The notes under the pieces are model-generated. The model saw nothing but the letters and a program-made list of their open reading frames with translations. It did not search any database and was not told the origin of the DNA. Positions 4,471-53,222 of a DNA stretch of 64,000 bases are shown here, in pieces. Numbering within the stretch: the first letter of the stretch is position 1; each line of letters opens with the position of its first letter. This DNA is from Pseudomonas sp. (GTDB lineage Bacteria; Pseudomonadota; Gammaproteobacteria; Pseudomonadales; Pseudomonadaceae): assembly GCF_030683065.1 (NCBI RefSeq), contig NZ_JAUXMX010000031.1, forward strand, positions 1 to 64,000, written 5' to 3'. A program made the translations under genes and the position numbers.

Positions 4471-6213
4471 ATGTTCAACAATAACAACAAGACCCGACAT
4501 AGCACGGCACTGGCCGCCTTGTTGGCCCTGTCCGGGCTGAGTGGCGCTGCCTGGGCCGATGCCTATGAAGACGCCGCGAAGAAATGGGTAAGCGCCGAAT
4601 TCGCCCCCTCAACCTTGACCCCCGAGCAACAGCTCGCCGAGTTGCAGTGGTTTATCAAGGCGGCCGAACCCTTCCGCGGCATGGAAATCAACGTCGCCTC
4701 GGAAACCATCGCCACCCACGAGTACGAGTCCAAGGTGCTGGCAAAAGCCTTTAGCGAAATCACCGGGATCAAGCTCAAGCACGACCTGATGCAGGAAGGC
4801 GATGTGGTCGAGAAGCTGCAAACCCAGATGCAGTCCGACAAGAACATCTACGACGGCTACATCAATGACTCCGATCTGATCGGCACCCACTTTCGCTACG
4901 GCAAGGCCGTGGCGATCAGCGACATGATCGCCGGCGACGGCAAGGACTTCACCTCGCCAACCCTCGATCTACCGGACTTTATCGGTCTTTCCTTTACCAC
5001 TGGGCCGGACGGCAAGCTCTATCAGCTGCCTGACCAGCAGTTCGCTAACCTCTACTGGTTTCGCGCCGACTGGTTCGAGCGCCCGGAGCTTAAGGCCAAA
5101 TTCAAGGAGCTCTATGGTTACGAGCTGGGCGTGCCGGTCAACTGGTCTGCCTATGAAGACATCGCCGAGTTCTTCTCGGAAAAGGTCAAGGAAATCGATG
5201 GCAAACGTATTTTCGGCCATATGGATTACGGCAAGAAGGACCCGTCCCTGGGGTGGCGCTTCACCGATGCCTGGTTCTCCATGGCCGGTGGCGGCGACAA
5301 GGGTCTGCCCAACGGTTTGCCGGTGGACGAGTGGGGCATTCGCGTCGATGGCTGCCGTCCAGTGGGTTCAAGCGTTTCCCGTGGCGGCGATACCAACGGC
5401 CCGGCAGCGGTCTATGCGACCACCAAATACGTCGACTGGATGCGCCAGTTCGCGCCGCCGGAAGCGCAGGGCATGACGTTCTCCGAGGCCGGCCCGGTGC
5501 CAGCTCAGGGCAGTATCGCCCAGCAAATATTCTGGTACACCGCCTTTACCGCCGACATGACCAAGCCCGGTCTGCCGGTAGTCAACGAAGACGGCACGCC
5601 TAAATGGCGTATGGCGCCGTCGCCCAAAGGCCCGTATTGGGAAGAAGGCATGAAGCTGGGCTATCAGGATGCGGGTTCCTGGACCTTCCTCAAGTCCACC
5701 CCCGATAAGCAGCGCCTGGCGGCCTGGCTCTACGCCCAGTTCGTCACCTCCAAGACCGTGTCGCTGAAGAAGACCCTGGTGGGATTAACGCCGATTCGCG
5801 AGTCGGACATCAATTCTCAAGCCATGACCGACGCCGCGCCAAATCTCGGCGGCCTGGTGGAGTTCTACCGCAGTCCTGCCCGGGAGCAGTGGACTCCTAC
5901 AGGCACCAACGTACCGGACTACCCACGCCTGGCGCAGCTTTGGTGGCAATTCATCGCCGAGGCAGCCAGTGGCGACAAGACTCCACAGCAAGCGCTTGAT
6001 GGTCTGGCGGCCGCACAGGACACCATGATGGGTCGCTTGGAGCGTTCGGGCGTGCAGGGCGATTGTGGGCCTAAGCTAAATGAGGCGCGTGATCCGCAAT
6101 ACTGGCTAGATCAGCCTGGAGCGCCTAAGCCGAAACTGGCTAACGAGAAGCCGAAAGGCGAAACCATCAATTACGAGGAGCTATTGAAATCCTGGGAGCA
6201 GGCGCGCAATTGA
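4471..6213 (+). CDS. glpV: Periplasmic substrate-binding protein of the glycerol importer (GlpV-like)
   Basis: Extracytoplasmic solute-binding protein of 580 aa. The ATG at 4471 has GGAG six bases upstream; an ATG at 4465 is also in frame and an ATG at 4381 is less likely. A Sec signal peptide ends near residue 29 (SGLSGAAWA before DAYED). The size is at the large end for binding proteins and fits the GlpV/YtfQ-unrelated family of glycerol systems. It is the last gene of the importer operon and is followed by a bidirectional terminator shared with folD. The substrate is inferred to be glycerol from the operon type and the GlpR-like operator, not from residues seen in a binding pocket. Confidence 0.82.
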   Translation: MFNNNNKTRHSTALAALLALSGLSGAAWADAYEDAAKKWVSAEFAPSTLTPEQQLAELQWFIKAAEPFRGMEINVASETIATHEYESKVLAKAFSEITGIKLKHDLMQEGDVVEKLQTQMQSDKNIYDGYINDSDLIGTHFRYGKAVAISDMIAGDGKDFTSPTLDLPDFIGLSFTTGPDGKLYQLPDQQFANLYWFRADWFERPELKAKFKELYGYELGVPVNWSAYEDIAEFFSEKVKEIDGKRIFGHMDYGKKDPSLGWRFTDAWFSMAGGGDKGLPNGLPVDEWGIRVDGCRPVGSSVSRGGDTNGPAAVYATTKYVDWMRQFAPPEAQGMTFSEAGPVPAQGSIAQQIFWYTAFTADMTKPGLPVVNEDGTPKWRMAPSPKGPYWEEGMKLGYQDAGSWTFLKSTPDKQRLAAWLYAQFVTSKTVSLKKTLVGLTPIRESDINSQAMTDAAPNLGGLVEFYRSPAREQWTPTGTNVPDYPRLAQLWWQFIAEAASGDKTPQQALDGLAAAQDTMMGRLERSGVQGDCGPKLNEARDPQYWLDQPGAPKPKLANEKPKGETINYEELLKSWEQARN

Positions 6214-29053: not shown

Positions 29054-29067
29054 TTGACGATGATCAA
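29054..29067 (+). promoter_or_regulatory. FNR-type (ANR/DNR) box before the chemoreceptor
   Basis: TTGACGATGATCAA, a 9-of-10 match. It lies only 29 bp before the chosen ATG, so class II activation would start transcription inside the gene. It may repress, or act on a start not recognised here. Confidence 0.55.
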
Positions 29068-46989: not shown

Positions 46990-47214
46990 TGCAAGTGCAC
47001 GTTCCTCTGGCGTGATCTGCAAGCGGGTCATACAGAGGACGAGTCCTCGCACCCCAGCCAGCGTCCAGGTCGACGTGAGAAACACGGCCCAGACCGCGAG
47101 AAACAGGACAAAACCAGGTACATAGGGTGGCGAGAAACCCGGTAGATCCCCGAACTCACCAGCACCGATGCCGTCTGCAGCTTCAGCGGCTAGACCATGG
47201 CTCTGGCCGCCTGG
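46990..47214 (-). pseudogene. Decayed copy of the ICMT-like methyltransferase gene
   Basis: The nucleotide sequence aligns with about 220 bp of the intact gene at 22699-23160. The minus strand still reads SSGIYRVSRHPMYL, then, after a one-base deletion near 47112, FVLFLAVWAVFL and RLQITPEERAL. An in-frame TAG replaces the Asn codon at 47190-47192. The N-terminal half is missing. The left boundary is at about 46990. The right boundary, near 47214, joins antitoxin-like sequence. Confidence 0.8.
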
Positions 47215-47355
47215 ATCGACCAGGAAGAAGAACGCCGCCGCTTGACCCGCGAAGCACTGGCCGATGTTGATGCCGGCCAGGTCATCGATCATCAAGCCGT
47301 TCAAGCCTGGGCCGAAAGCCTCGGCAGCGACACTGTGCTACCGGTCCCGCGCTAA
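47197..47355 (+). CDS. Truncated antitoxin, C-terminal part (RHH domain lost)
   Basis: 52 codons ending one base into the next start (TAATG). From IDQEEERRRLTREALADVDA to the end it looks like the toxin-binding tail of antitoxins paired with ParE/RelE toxins. The first six residues (MALAAW) are antisense to the methyltransferase pseudogene, and no ribosome site is visible. The DNA-binding N-terminus seems lost by a rearrangement at about 47214. Expression is doubtful. Confidence 0.6.
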   Translation: MALAAWIDQEEERRRLTREALADVDAGQVIDHQAVQAWAESLGSDTVLPVPR

Positions 47356-47630
47356 TGGAGTTGAAGTGGACCAGCAAGGCGCTCAATGACTTGGCCAGGC
47401 TCTACGAGTTTCTGGCCAGCGTGAACAAGCCTGCCGCCGCGCCCACGGTTCAACAGCTCACTGCCGCGCCGATAACCCTGCTGAGCAACCCGCGTCTTGG
47501 CGAACGGCTGGAAGAATTCGATCCGCGCGAAGTGCGACGTATCCTGGCCGGGCACTATGAGATGCGCTACGAGATCCAGGAATCCACCCTCTACCTGCTG
47601 CGCCTGTGGCATACCCGCGAGAGTCGATAG
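47355..47630 (+). CDS. RelE/ParE-family toxin
   Basis: 91 aa, basic, with the fold-typical segments MELKWTSKALNDLARLYEFL, RLGERLEEFDPREVRRIL and YEMRYEIQESTLYLLRLWHT. It appears full length and intact. The start overlaps the stop of the damaged antitoxin. ParE-like members hit gyrase and RelE-like ones cleave mRNA; this cannot be told from the sequence here. An intact toxin beside a truncated antitoxin implies that it is weakly expressed or that the tail still neutralises it. Confidence 0.82.
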   Translation: MELKWTSKALNDLARLYEFLASVNKPAAAPTVQQLTAAPITLLSNPRLGERLEEFDPREVRRILAGHYEMRYEIQESTLYLLRLWHTRESR

Positions 47631-47831: not shown

Positions 47832-47845
47832 TTGATCGAGGTCAA
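47832..47845 (+). promoter_or_regulatory. ANR/DNR box of nrdD
   Basis: TTGATCGAGGTCAA matches 9 of 10 positions. TAACTT (47868-47873) lies exactly 29.5 bp from the centre. An AT-rich stretch follows before the ribosome site. Confidence 0.85.
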
Positions 47846-47931: not shown

Positions 47932-49956
47932 ATGCTCAGCCCGGTTAAAGCCCTTCATCCTCAGCAGTTATGCAAGCGCGATGGCAGCATCGCGGCGTTC
48001 GATCTCGGCAAGATCCGTCTGGCGATCTACGCGGCGGGGGAGGTCAGTGGTGAATTCGACGAGGCTCTGGCGGGGGAGTTGGCCGAAGCGGTGCTGCTGC
48101 GCCTGCAGGACTTGCCCAGTATCGATATCGAGCAGGTGCAAGACCGCGTCGAGCGGGTGTTGATGGAGGCCGGTTTCTATCAAACTGCGCGCGCCTATAT
48201 CGTCTACCGCGAACGTCATGGCCGGCTGCGTCGTGACCGCAAGGCGCTGGTGGATGTGGCCGCGTCGATGAACGAATACCTGTCGCGCGAGGACTGGCGG
48301 GTGCGCGCCAACGCCAACCAGGGTTATTCCCTTGGCGGGCTGATTCTCAACGTGTCAGGCAAGGTCACCGCCAACTACTGGCTGGACGAGGTGTACAGCG
48401 AGGCCATCGGCCAGGCCCATCGCGAGGCCGATCTACATGTTCACGATCTGGACATGCTCGCCGGTTACTGCGCCGGCTGGTCACTGCGCAGCCTGCTCAA
48501 TGAGGGTTTCAACGGTATTCCCGGGCGGGTCGAGGCGGGGCCGCCCAAGCACTTGTCCAGCGCCCTGGGGCAGATGGTCAACTTTCTCGGCACCTTGCAG
48601 AACGAGTGGGCCGGCGCTCAGGCCTTCAGCTCCTTCGATACCTACCTGGCGCCCTATGTGCGCAAGGACAACCTGGGTTTCGCCGAGGTGCGTCAGGCGA
48701 TCCAGGAGTTTATCTATAACCTCAACGTGCCGTCGCGCTGGGGCACCCAGACGCCCTTCACCAACCTGACCTTCGACTGGGTGTGCCCGGAAGACCTGCG
48801 CGAGCAGATTCCCTATATCGGCGGCGTGGAAATGCCGTTTGCCTACGGCGATCTGCAGGCCGAGATGGAGCTGATCAACCGCGCCTATATCGAGGTGATG
48901 CAGGCCGGCGACGCCATGGGCCGGGTGTTCACCTTCCCGATTCCGACCTACAACATCACCCATGACTTTCCCTGGGACAGCGAGAACGCCGACCGCCTGT
49001 TCGAGATGACCGCGCGTTATGGCCTGCCGTATTTCCAGAACTTCCTCAATTCGGACATGCAGCCCAATCAGGTGCGCTCGATGTGCTGCCGCCTGCAACT
49101 GGACGTGCGCGAACTGCTTAAGCGCGGTGGCGGCCTTTTCGGTTCGGCCGAGCAGACCGGCTCCCTGGGGGTGGTGACGATCAACTGCGCGCGCCTCGGC
49201 TATCTGTACAAGGGCGACACCCAGGGTCTGCTCAAGCGCCTCGATCAGTTGATGGAGCTGGCAATGGAAAGCCTGGAGGTCAAGCGCAAGGTGATCCAGC
49301 ACCATATGGACGCCGGCCTCTATCCCTATACCAAGCGTTACCTGGGCACCCTGCGTAATCACTTCTCGACCATCGGCCTGAACGGCATGCACGAGATGCT
49401 GCGCAATTTCACCGGTGACCAGGAAGGCATGCACACGCCGAAGGGCCGCGAATTCGCCTTGCATTTGCTCGACCATGTCCGCGCCACCCTGATGCGTTTC
49501 CAGGAAGAAACCGGGCAGATGTACAACCTCGAGGCGACGCCGGCCGAGGGCACCACCTACCGTTTCGCCAAGGAAGACCGCAAGCGCTACCCGGACATTC
49601 TCCAGGCCGGCAGTGCCGAGGCGCCGTACTACACCAACTCCTCGCAATTGCCGGTGGGCTTCACCGACGACCCCTTCGAGGCCCTGGAACTGCAGGACGA
49701 ACTGCAGTGCAAGTACACCGGCGGCACCGTGCTGCACCTGTATATGGCTGAGCGAATTTCCTCGATCCAGGCCTGCAAGCAACTGGTGCGCAGCGCCCTG
49801 GGCCGTTTCCGCCTGCCGTACCTGACGATAACCCCGACCTTTTCCATCTGCCCGGTGCACGGCTACCTGGATGGCGAACACGAGTTCTGCCCGAAATGCG
49901 ACGAGGCGCTGCTGCACAAGCAGCAAGGCTGCGCCGCCACAAACGACGCCTCTTGA
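47932..49956 (+). CDS. nrdD: Anaerobic (class III) ribonucleotide reductase, large part without glycyl-radical segment
   Basis: Reduces ribonucleotides to deoxyribonucleotides without oxygen. The product has 674 aa, start at 47932 behind AGGAGG. An ATP-cone occupies about residues 5-95. The catalytic barrel follows, with HDLDMLAGYCAGWSL and MCCRLQLDVRELL. The end carries the zinc motif SICPVHGYLDGEHEFCPKC. Normal NrdD continues into a short segment with the radical glycine, but this frame stops 18 residues after the CPKC. The missing segment is the next gene. Two in-frame stops (TGA at 49954, TAG at 49963) separate them, so read-through is unlikely. Confidence 0.93.
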   Translation: MLSPVKALHPQQLCKRDGSIAAFDLGKIRLAIYAAGEVSGEFDEALAGELAEAVLLRLQDLPSIDIEQVQDRVERVLMEAGFYQTARAYIVYRERHGRLRRDRKALVDVAASMNEYLSREDWRVRANANQGYSLGGLILNVSGKVTANYWLDEVYSEAIGQAHREADLHVHDLDMLAGYCAGWSLRSLLNEGFNGIPGRVEAGPPKHLSSALGQMVNFLGTLQNEWAGAQAFSSFDTYLAPYVRKDNLGFAEVRQAIQEFIYNLNVPSRWGTQTPFTNLTFDWVCPEDLREQIPYIGGVEMPFAYGDLQAEMELINRAYIEVMQAGDAMGRVFTFPIPTYNITHDFPWDSENADRLFEMTARYGLPYFQNFLNSDMQPNQVRSMCCRLQLDVRELLKRGGGLFGSAEQTGSLGVVTINCARLGYLYKGDTQGLLKRLDQLMELAMESLEVKRKVIQHHMDAGLYPYTKRYLGTLRNHFSTIGLNGMHEMLRNFTGDQEGMHTPKGREFALHLLDHVRATLMRFQEETGQMYNLEATPAEGTTYRFAKEDRKRYPDILQAGSAEAPYYTNSSQLPVGFTDDPFEALELQDELQCKYTGGTVLHLYMAERISSIQACKQLVRSALGRFRLPYLTITPTFSICPVHGYLDGEHEFCPKCDEALLHKQQGCAATNDAS

Positions 49957-49998
49957 ATACCTAGGATTCCCCCTTTACCCACAGCAAGGAGCGACACC

Positions 49999-50166
49999 AT
50001 GCAAAACACTCAGCAACTCCCAGAAGCACAACGCCAACGCTGCGAAGTCTGGACCCGGGTGATGGGCTACCACCGCCCGGTCACTGCCTTCAATCCAGGC
50101 AAGCAATCCGAGCACCGCGAGCGTCAGCACTTCACCGAAGCGGCGGCGCGAGTCAGCGCTGCGTGA
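49999..50166 (+). CDS. Separate glycyl-radical segment of NrdD (55 aa)
   Basis: 55 codons behind a near-perfect AAGGAG at 49986 with seven bases of spacing. Residues 18-37 read WTRVMGYHRPVTAFNPGKQS, the glycyl-radical loop of class III reductases, with Gly23 as the likely radical site. EHRERQHF follows. The stop overlaps the GTG of nrdG (GTGA), so it is probably translated with its activase. It is expected to join NrdD as a small subunit, by analogy with the stand-alone glycyl-radical protein GrcA (YfiD) that rescues pyruvate formate-lyase. No member of this arrangement is known to me with certainty. Confidence 0.85.
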   Translation: MQNTQQLPEAQRQRCEVWTRVMGYHRPVTAFNPGKQSEHRERQHFTEAAARVSAA

Positions 50167-50861
50167 GTAGAGTGCTTCGGGTCGGGGGCATGGTGCCCCT
50201 GACCACCCTCGACTATCCCGGGCTGCTGGCCTGTGTGCTGTTCTGTCAGGGCTGCGCCTGGCGTTGTCGTTATTGCCACAACCCGGACCTGATCGCGGCC
50301 CGTGGCGAGCATGAAATCCCCTGGTCGCAGGTGCTGGACTTCCTCCAGCGGCGCCAGGGACTGCTGCAGGCCGTGGTCTTCAGTGGCGGCGAGGCGACCT
50401 TGCAAGGCGGCCTGGTGCCGGCGATGGAGCAGGTGCGTCAGCTGGGTTTTCGCGTCGGCCTGCACAGCGCCGGGATCAAGCCCTGGGCCTTTGCCTGGGC
50501 GCTGCAAGCGGCGGACTGGGTCGGTTTCGACATCAAGGCCCTGGCCGAGGATGCCGAGCTGATCACCGGGGTCAGCGGCAGTGGCAAGGCCAACTGGCGT
50601 AGCCTGGAACACCTCTTGGTCAGCGGCGTGGCCTACGAGTGCCGCACCACCGTGCATTGGCACCTGCTGGATGTGGACAAGCTCTGGCGCATCGGCCAGC
50701 GCCTGCATGCCTTCGGCGTCGAACACTTCGCCGTGCAGCTGGTGCGCAGCGCACGCATGCTCGACCCGGAGCTGCCCATGACCGCGACACCCAACGAGGC
50801 GAGCGAGCTGTGGCTGCGTCTGGCACAACTGTTCCCGCATTTCGAATTGCGTGATCACTGA
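50163..50861 (+). CDS. nrdG: Anaerobic ribonucleotide reductase activating enzyme
   Basis: Radical-SAM activase of 232 aa that abstracts hydrogen from the radical glycine of NrdD. It starts at a GTG overlapping the preceding stop. The cluster motif is Cys31, Cys35 and Cys38 in CAWRCRYCHN, and VVFSGGEATLQGG is the SAM-binding Gly-rich strand. Its physical coupling to the 55-aa glycyl-radical gene suggests that the small protein is its direct substrate. Confidence 0.93.
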   Translation: MSRVLRVGGMVPLTTLDYPGLLACVLFCQGCAWRCRYCHNPDLIAARGEHEIPWSQVLDFLQRRQGLLQAVVFSGGEATLQGGLVPAMEQVRQLGFRVGLHSAGIKPWAFAWALQAADWVGFDIKALAEDAELITGVSGSGKANWRSLEHLLVSGVAYECRTTVHWHLLDVDKLWRIGQRLHAFGVEHFAVQLVRSARMLDPELPMTATPNEASELWLRLAQLFPHFELRDH

Positions 50862-53208: not shown

Positions 53209-53222
53209 TTGATTGCGGTCAA
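53209..53222 (+). promoter_or_regulatory. ANR/DNR box of nosR
   Basis: TTGATTGCGGTCAA matches 9 of 10 positions. TACCAT (53245-53250) lies exactly 29.5 bp from the centre and is a good -10. Confidence 0.85.

What the first reader, a model, noticed from the sequence alone, without database searches (positions are those of the whole stretch)
47932..50861. Class III ribonucleotide reductase split so that the glycyl-radical loop is a separate 55-aa gene
NrdD stops 18 residues after its zinc motif (CPKC). The missing C-terminal segment (RVMGYHRPV, GKQ, EHRER) is encoded at 49999-50166 with its own strong ribosome site, and its stop overlaps the nrdG start. The two pieces are in the same phase but separated by TGA and TAG, so this is not a simple frameshift. 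Radical chemistry would need the small protein to dock into the NrdD barrel, and NrdG would act on a peptide of only 55 residues. The nearest known parallel is GrcA (YfiD), a spare glycyl-radical domain for pyruvate formate-lyase. A split could allow replacement of oxygen-damaged radical subunits without rebuilding NrdD. I cannot tell whether this arrangement has been described; many Pseudomonas may share it and miss the small gene.
Basis: partly seen in the sequence, partly recalled or inferred. Interest (0 to 1): 0.8.

Follow-up and report, generated by a model that had tools for sequence, protein, structure and literature searches.

The report
Two-piece anaerobic ribonucleotide reductase
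In this Pseudomonas and many other bacteria the oxygen-free enzyme that makes DNA building blocks is encoded in two pieces, its radical-carrying tail being a separate gene for 55 residues, and dozens of viral contigs carry a gene for that tail with no rest of the enzyme found, so the tail likely works as a plug-in, replaceable part.

Summary
NrdD (47932-49956) ends shortly after its zinc motif. The missing glycyl-radical segment is a 55-aa gene (49999-50166) whose stop overlaps nrdG. The genome has no other NRDD match.

It is not an error or read-through: in 79 of 81 loci (window plus 80 named) the small gene follows nrdD, in all three phases; the other two contigs end soon after nrdD. It is under strong purifying selection. 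Plasmids of beta-, alphaproteobacteria and Campylobacterota have it too. In a 76-row tree the two-piece form fills one clade (SH-aLRT 86) holding four one-piece lineages, among them a Pseudomonas (89% identical NrdD): apparent re-fusions, natural evidence that the pieces form one enzyme.

New here: 80 of 80 best IMG/VR loci carry this domain with no NrdD match in the held flanks; in 48 of 48 records searched whole, no match to the catalytic part or to NrdG2 was found (records may be fragments). A phage-like region holds an extra copy in a genome whose own NrdD is two-piece.

Best reading: an obligatory radical subunit, activated by NrdG and bound by NrdD; phages likely supply spares. AlphaFold did not dock it confidently. 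No biochemistry was possible.

The parts
47832..47845 (+). FNR/Anr/Dnr-type box TTGATCGAGGTCAA, 86 nt before the nrdD ATG
   Evidence: the DNA search: 3 matches in the window, 0.06 expected; regulator inferred from the consensus; a Dnr box in the P. aeruginosa nrdDG promoter is described in PMC5645315 (passages)
47932..49956 (+). nrdD large piece: ATP cone, barrel and zinc motif; 674 aa; no glycyl-radical segment
49849..49899 (+). C640-x2-H643 ... C653-x2-C656 motif, the presumed zinc site, wholly in the large piece
   Evidence: C640, H643, C653 and C656 invariant in 43 rows; zinc role inferred from known NrdD structures
49954..49956 (+). TGA stop of nrdD, the only in-phase stop between the two pieces
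   Evidence: translation in phase
49986..49991 (+). Shine-Dalgarno AAGGAG, 7 nt before the small gene's ATG
   Evidence: sequence
49999..50166 (+). separate glycyl-radical-segment gene, 55 aa, RCEVWTRVMGYHRPV...NPGKQSEHRER
   Evidence: NRDD 531-562 E 9.1e-9; conserved as a separate gene; selection
50065..50067 (+). codon of Gly23, the presumed radical glycine (RVMGY)
   Evidence: RVMGYHRP invariant in 37 aligned rows, 18 bacterial and 19 viral; aligns with RVVGY of one-piece relatives
50163..50861 (+). nrdG, radical-SAM activase; GTG start overlaps the TGA of the small gene by 4 nt
   Evidence: TIGR02495 NrdG2 210 bits over cut-off 131.15

Best explanation
The 55-aa gene at 49999-50166 is a separate gene for the glycyl-radical segment of class III ribonucleotide reductase, and its product likely docks into the 674-aa NrdD, where NrdG would place the radical on Gly23. 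Shown: the large piece holds ATP cone, barrel and zinc motif, the small one the missing segment; they are separate, conserved, selected genes beside nrdG, and joined lineages occur inside the two-piece clade. Inferred: the small protein is an obligatory subunit; its loop enters the barrel beside the active-site cysteine; oxygen would cut only a 6-kDa part that can be re-made; and phages and plasmids that carry the small gene alone supply fresh radical subunits to the host's NrdD.
For: Complementary coverage of the NRDD profile. No other NRDD in the genome. 79 of 81 loci have the small gene after nrdD, phases 18/27/34, ATG in 78 of 79, 4-nt overlap with nrdG in 57 of 79. Median dN/dS 0.03 over 2270 bacterial pairs in the usable range. 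In 369 genomes of the class, 33 match the small protein: 28 two-piece (window included), 4 one-piece, 1 unclear at a contig end. Two-piece loci on Cupriavidus, Bradyrhizobium, Paracoccus, Shinella, Cereibacter, Thiothrix and Sulfuricurvum plasmids. One-piece lineages nested in the two-piece clade, junction FCPKCAGVTRCEVWTRVMGYHRPV in a Pseudomonas. [quoted passage not shown] necator H16 (passage of PMC2864759), whose locus is two-piece. 80 of 80 viral loci have the GRD without an NrdD or NrdG match in the held flanks; 48 of 48 whole viral records match only the last part of NRDD, positions 513-562, and 0 of 48 match NrdG2. 79 of 80 viral loci keep the core motif.
Against: Two AlphaFold runs on the read-through chain gave mean pLDDT of 33-66 per ten residues for the small part and no confident docking. 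Translation of the small gene, binding, radical formation and oxygen cleavage are untested. Viral records may be fragments: 15 of the 80 loci have under 1 kb upstream of the domain, where an nrdD would lie; hosts are unknown. Viral copies evolve under weaker constraint (dN/dS 0.21). The passages seen on P. aeruginosa nrdDG describe two genes only. In Thiothrix the large gene's match is in two segments and it is not listed as a CDS, so that copy may be broken.
Confidence: 0.9

Rival explanations
1. One broken or read-through gene: the TGA is a sequencing error, a recent nonsense mutation, or is read through to make one chain.
For: In the window the pieces lie in the same phase with a single TGA between them.
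Against: Other loci have the pieces in all three phases with TGA, TAA or TAG stops and offsets of -10 to 411 nt, and a start codon with a ribosome site. A 99% identical relative from another assembly has the same arrangement.
Confidence: 0.03
2. The small protein is only a GrcA-like spare for oxygen-cut NrdD, not an obligatory subunit.
For: It resembles the GrcA/YfiD idea; viral and plasmid copies stand alone.
Against: In the window the resident NrdD has no radical segment of its own and there is no other NRDD, so the small protein must serve the undamaged enzyme too. The spare role may still hold for viral copies.
Confidence: 0.05
3. The locus is decaying: NrdD lost its end and the class III enzyme is dead in these lineages.
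For: Many Pseudomonadaceae have no match over the PRK08270 cut-off: only 129 of 398 genomes are over it. Class I or II enzymes may suffice.
Against: Purifying selection on the small gene; the arrangement is kept across several classes; nrdDG is needed in C. necator H16 (passage) and a cloned nrdDG fragment complements P. aeruginosa (passages).
Confidence: 0.02
4. Phage copies do something else, for example inhibit or decoy the host activase NrdG, rather than supply a working radical subunit.
For: No NrdD catalytic match in 48 of 48 viral records; a lone GRD could bind NrdG or NrdD without helping.
Against: Viral copies keep the glycine, RVMGYHRP, NxGK and the glutamate and arginine that follow: unchanged in 19 viral rows aligned, and 79 of 80 viral loci fit the core pattern. 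A decoy would not need all of these.
Confidence: 0.25

Closest known systems
One-piece NrdD (E. coli, phage T4, Thermotoga maritima 4COI, Prevotella copri 8P23)
   Same: Same barrel fold, zinc-type motif, RVxGY loop and NrdG activase
   Different: Here the chain ends after the zinc motif and the loop is a separate protein; in the one-piece relatives shown about 3-5 residues join them
GrcA/YfiD of E. coli and Y06I of phage T4 (spare parts for pyruvate formate-lyase)
   Same: Small free-standing glycyl-radical domain; one is phage-borne (passages of PMC8683613)
   Different: They mend an enzyme that normally has its own domain and belong to the PFL type; here the small protein is of NRDD type and the resident enzyme lacks the domain
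Split class II RNR NrdJa/NrdJb of P. aeruginosa
   Same: A ribonucleotide reductase encoded in two consecutive genes (passages)
   Different: Different class, cofactor and cut site; no glycyl radical subunit
Split phage RNR genes (NrdA of Aeh1, nrdD of phiAS4, Jug phages)
   Same: RNR coding regions in pieces (passages)
   Different: Those are cut by introns, inteins, endonucleases or unknown breaks; here two conserved cistrons at one fixed cut site
RefSeq gene 'nrdD, anaerobic ribonucleoside-triphosphate reductase' of about 60 aa
   Same: The very same small gene, auto-annotated
   Different: Named by homology; no statement found that it is a separate radical subunit

Membership tests
Class III ribonucleotide reductase (NrdD) | NRDD catalytic barrel | tested here: met
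Class III ribonucleotide reductase (NrdD) | Radical glycine loop on the same chain as the barrel | tested here: not met
   Loop is in the 55-aa gene that starts 42 nt after the nrdD stop
Class III ribonucleotide reductase (NrdD) | Adjacent NrdG radical-SAM activase | tested here: met
   TIGR02495 210 bits over cut-off 131.15
Class III ribonucleotide reductase (NrdD) | Glycyl radical formation and NTP reduction | not testable with these tools
   Needs EPR and enzyme assay
Class III ribonucleotide reductase (NrdD) | Glycyl loop docked in the barrel | tested here: inconclusive
   Two AlphaFold runs, small part at mean pLDDT 33-66 per ten residues
GrcA/YfiD autonomous glycyl radical cofactor | PFL-type glycyl radical domain | tested here: not met
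   Small protein hits PF13597 NRDD and one DUF at E 0.096 only, with E up to 10 allowed
GrcA/YfiD autonomous glycyl radical cofactor | A complete enzyme of the same type, with its own domain, in the same genome | tested here: not met
   Only the two-piece NRDD in the window's genome
GrcA/YfiD autonomous glycyl radical cofactor | Restores an oxygen-cut enzyme | not testable with these tools
   Biochemistry needed

The most novel reading that the evidence does not exclude
Class III RNR exists as a cartridge enzyme: a large body and an exchangeable radical subunit of about 6 kDa, old and widespread in Pseudomonadota, repeatedly re-fused, and so modular that unrelated phages and plasmids carry only the cartridge and plug it into the host's NrdD to keep anaerobic dNTP synthesis running during infection. 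This would be the first spare-part family for a glycyl radical enzyme other than pyruvate formate-lyase.
Probability: 0.5. Interest if true: 0.87.

Novelty: new variant of a known kind. Interest (0 to 1): 0.78.

Why it matters
In the NrdD structures matched here the radical loop, where seen, belongs to the same chain (recalled for the structures; stated for P. copri and T. maritima in passages). A two-chain version makes it directly testable whether an activase works on a free peptide or on the complex, how the loop enters the barrel, and whether oxygen damage can be mended by swapping a small part. The authors of the YfiD study wrote that only two spare parts, both for PFL, had been validated and that others may exist (passage of PMC8683613); this supplies a concrete candidate family. 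It also means that NrdD alone from Pseudomonas or Cupriavidus would lack the radical site, and it suggests a function for phrog_4132 (unknown function).

Tried and rejected
Read-through, frameshift and sequencing error: rejected on phase and spacing. Second NrdD in the genome: none. Second radical-domain gene in the genome: the other matches are weak, E 0.1 or worse. Cultured phages: tblastn with the window protein (11 records) and with a viral one (9 records) gave only hits below 80% query coverage; the annotated ones (8 of 11 and 7 of 9) lie in genes named as NrdD, the rest have no annotation. So the free viral copies found are all from IMG/VR contigs. PDB by sequence: the small protein hits 4COI only at E 0.97, below unrelated chains. 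Docking by AlphaFold: inconclusive twice. A conserved phage neighbour: 66 of 80 viral loci had an upstream ORF of 80 aa or more, in 44 groups by blastp at 1e-6, the largest of 9; no partner is shared by all (ORFs picked mechanically). The dN/dS part failed and was redone with my own code. Papers: the listings showed none on a split class III enzyme of this kind by title or abstract start. I saw only passages (term finds) of 15 papers; the library holds open-licence papers only, so this does not show that it is unpublished. The 1999 paper on the C. necator H16 enzyme is not held; PMC12662201 was seen as a listing only.

Full report
Observation. The window holds nrdD (47932-49956, 674 aa), a 55-aa ORF (49999-50166) and nrdG (50163-50861). 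The first matches Pfam NRDD 2-528 and the second NRDD 531-562 of 562; NCBIfam PRK08270.1 is matched at 3-658 and 648-682 of 684. The presumed zinc motif (C640, H643, C653, C656, invariant in 43 rows) is wholly in the large piece. In the one-piece relatives shown, about 3-5 residues separate its last cysteine from the EV(Y/W)(S/T)R(V/I)xGY loop, so the cut falls between zinc motif and radical loop. An FNR-type box lies 86 nt before the nrdD ATG. The genome has no other NRDD match and no other good match to the small protein.

Separate gene, not read-through. Of 81 loci (window plus the 80 named genome loci), 79 have the small ORF after nrdD; the other two contigs stop 548 nt (within repeats) and 71 nt after it. 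Relative phase is 0, 1 or 2 in 18, 27 and 34 loci; stops are TGA 68, TAA 9, TAG 2; the small start lies -10 to 411 nt from the end of the stop (median 33); the chosen start is ATG in 78 of 79 and has a 6-nt Shine-Dalgarno match in 67 of 79 (the best-scoring start was picked, which favours both counts); nrdG overlaps by 4 nt in 57 of 79. The core codons show median dN/dS 0.03 over the 2270 bacterial pairs with usable synonymous distance. A 48-aa member labelled Pseudomonas aeruginosa is in the protein database (P0124), where 1469 proteins within 0.55 to 1.75 times its length match the window protein at E up to 0.01; some of these, from short contigs, may be cut ends of one-piece genes.

Distribution. 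In 150 genomes of the phylum, 14 have NRDD: 6 two-piece, all in the window's order, and 8 one-piece. In 369 genomes of the class, 33 match the small protein at E up to 1e-4: 28 two-piece (window included), 4 one-piece (G800, G555, G471, G902) and 1 unclear at a contig end (G728, L256). That query finds window-like segments, so it is no census: the E. coli-type one-piece enzymes do not match it. Of the 27 clear two-piece loci fetched there, 25 have an NrdG match downstream, in L243 about 0.8 kb away. Plasmid records add Cupriavidus necator H16, C. metallidurans, Bradyrhizobium, Paracoccus, Shinella, Cereibacter, Azospira, Sulfuricystis, Aquabacterium, Thiothrix (large gene possibly broken) and Sulfuricurvum as two-piece, and Actinomyces, Acidiphilium, Acidithiobacillus and Geoalkalibacter as one-piece. 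Records label the small gene nrdD or anaerobic reductase in eight of the two-piece loci fetched. A genome paper lists the C. metallidurans enzyme as Rmet_5137 and Rmet_5139 (passage of PMC2864759); the skipped number is presumably the small gene (inference).

Evolution. A quick tree of 76 NrdD rows without the radical segment puts 62 two-piece rows and 5 one-piece rows in one clade (SH-aLRT 86); the other nine one-piece rows lie outside (L264, mislabelled by my script, among them). The five are four lineages: a Pseudomonas (G296) and Acidiphilium, well nested; Actinomyces, less well; G800 (two rows of one genome), unresolved at the base of the clade. The simplest reading is one old split and several re-fusions, but many forks are weak and well-supported branches alone force only three changes. 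In the G296 protein, 89% identical to the window NrdD, the zinc motif runs into the radical loop. Of the listed rows over the family cut-off in 398 Pseudomonadaceae genomes it is the only one that reaches the loop without a stop.

Phages and plasmids. The viral scan found 127 relatives; the best 80 were kept, and in all 80 the domain is a free ORF with no NrdD or NrdG match in the held flanks; 15 of the 80 have under 1 kb upstream, so an nrdD beyond the contig end is possible there. I gave 48 of the 80 records (8.7 to 212 kb; 7 of them with under 1 kb upstream) to a whole-record search: 48 of 48 match only positions 513-562 of NRDD, 46 over the curated cut-off, and one record has a second weak match, also at the end of the profile; 0 of 48 match NrdG2 at E up to 0.01. 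Of ten neighbouring proteins scanned, four are recognisable phage genes (DNA polymerase, Mu-type portal whose end meets the GRD ORF, tail protein J, replication initiation), one hits a phage family of unknown function and five have no hit. Upstream neighbours fall into 44 groups, and the viral label needs 24 changes on a poorly resolved 43-column tree, at least 5 forced by well-supported forks, so the gene was probably taken up many times. Viral dN/dS is 0.21 over 544 pairs. RVMGYHRP, NxGK and a following glutamate and arginine are invariant over 37 rows, 19 of them viral, and 79 of 80 viral loci fit the core pattern. Two Allochromatium plasmids carry the gene alone; neither is among the 31 plasmid records with an NrdD match. 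In genome G844 a free copy lies next to SSB and RecT genes and within about 20 kb of helicase, DnaB-like and replication initiation genes of phage type, while the same genome has the two-piece operon with a near-identical small protein (52 identical positions of 62). No virion gene was among the 16 proteins scanned there, so the region is phage-like, not a proven prophage.

Novelty. The kinds are known (class III RNR; spare glycyl-radical domains; split RNRs). The combination, an obligatory separate radical subunit of class III RNR and its free-standing carriage by phages, was not found in the searches listed under Tried and rejected. Those cover open-licence papers only.

Noticed in passing
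window 47355-47630 (+): ParE-type toxin gene (PF05016, E 1.2e-14) just upstream of nrdD; a 52-aa ORF at 47197-47355 overlaps it and may be the antitoxin (no Pfam hit).
   Followed up: partly
window 29054-29067 (-) and 53209-53222 (+): Two further FNR/Anr-type boxes TTGATNNNNRTCAA; 3 in the window against 0.06 expected.
   Followed up: no
G006, G023, G048, G149, G004, G134, G066, G153, G074, G296: NrdDs of Pseudomonadaceae whose profile match starts at 87-95, so they seem to lack the ATP cone that controls activity.
   Followed up: no
L260:5918-7156 (-), genome G844: A 413-aa protein near the free GRD copy begins with the end of a ribonucleoside-diphosphate reductase (phrog_84, E 9e-7): possibly a class II RNR piece beside a class III piece.
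   Followed up: partly
L054 after position 5016 (Pseudomonas lini CC269): The stretch after nrdD is filled with repeats up to the contig end; gaps of 246-468 nt from nrdD stop to the motif in L035, L037 and L038 may be similar insertions.
   Followed up: no
window NrdD Cys419 (VVTINCAR): In the one-piece sister clade the consensus at this finger-loop position is Met (VVTINM), while Cys385-Cys386 are invariant in 43 rows, reminiscent of the SCCR motif of T. maritima NrdD (passages).
   Followed up: no
phrog_4132: PHROG family of unknown function (179 positions) that holds this radical segment at about 114-156.
   Followed up: partly
L115, L116, L124, L127, L132, L137-L139, L151, L157, L180: Some viral copies carry an N-terminal cysteine-rich stretch (such as PCAHL...CELGR...C..CAAY) before the radical segment, perhaps a metal-binding domain.
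   Followed up: no
L261 (G243) and L222 (G567): Distant one-piece NrdDs with an unusual end (RVIGYLKxVS and no NxGK).
   Followed up: no
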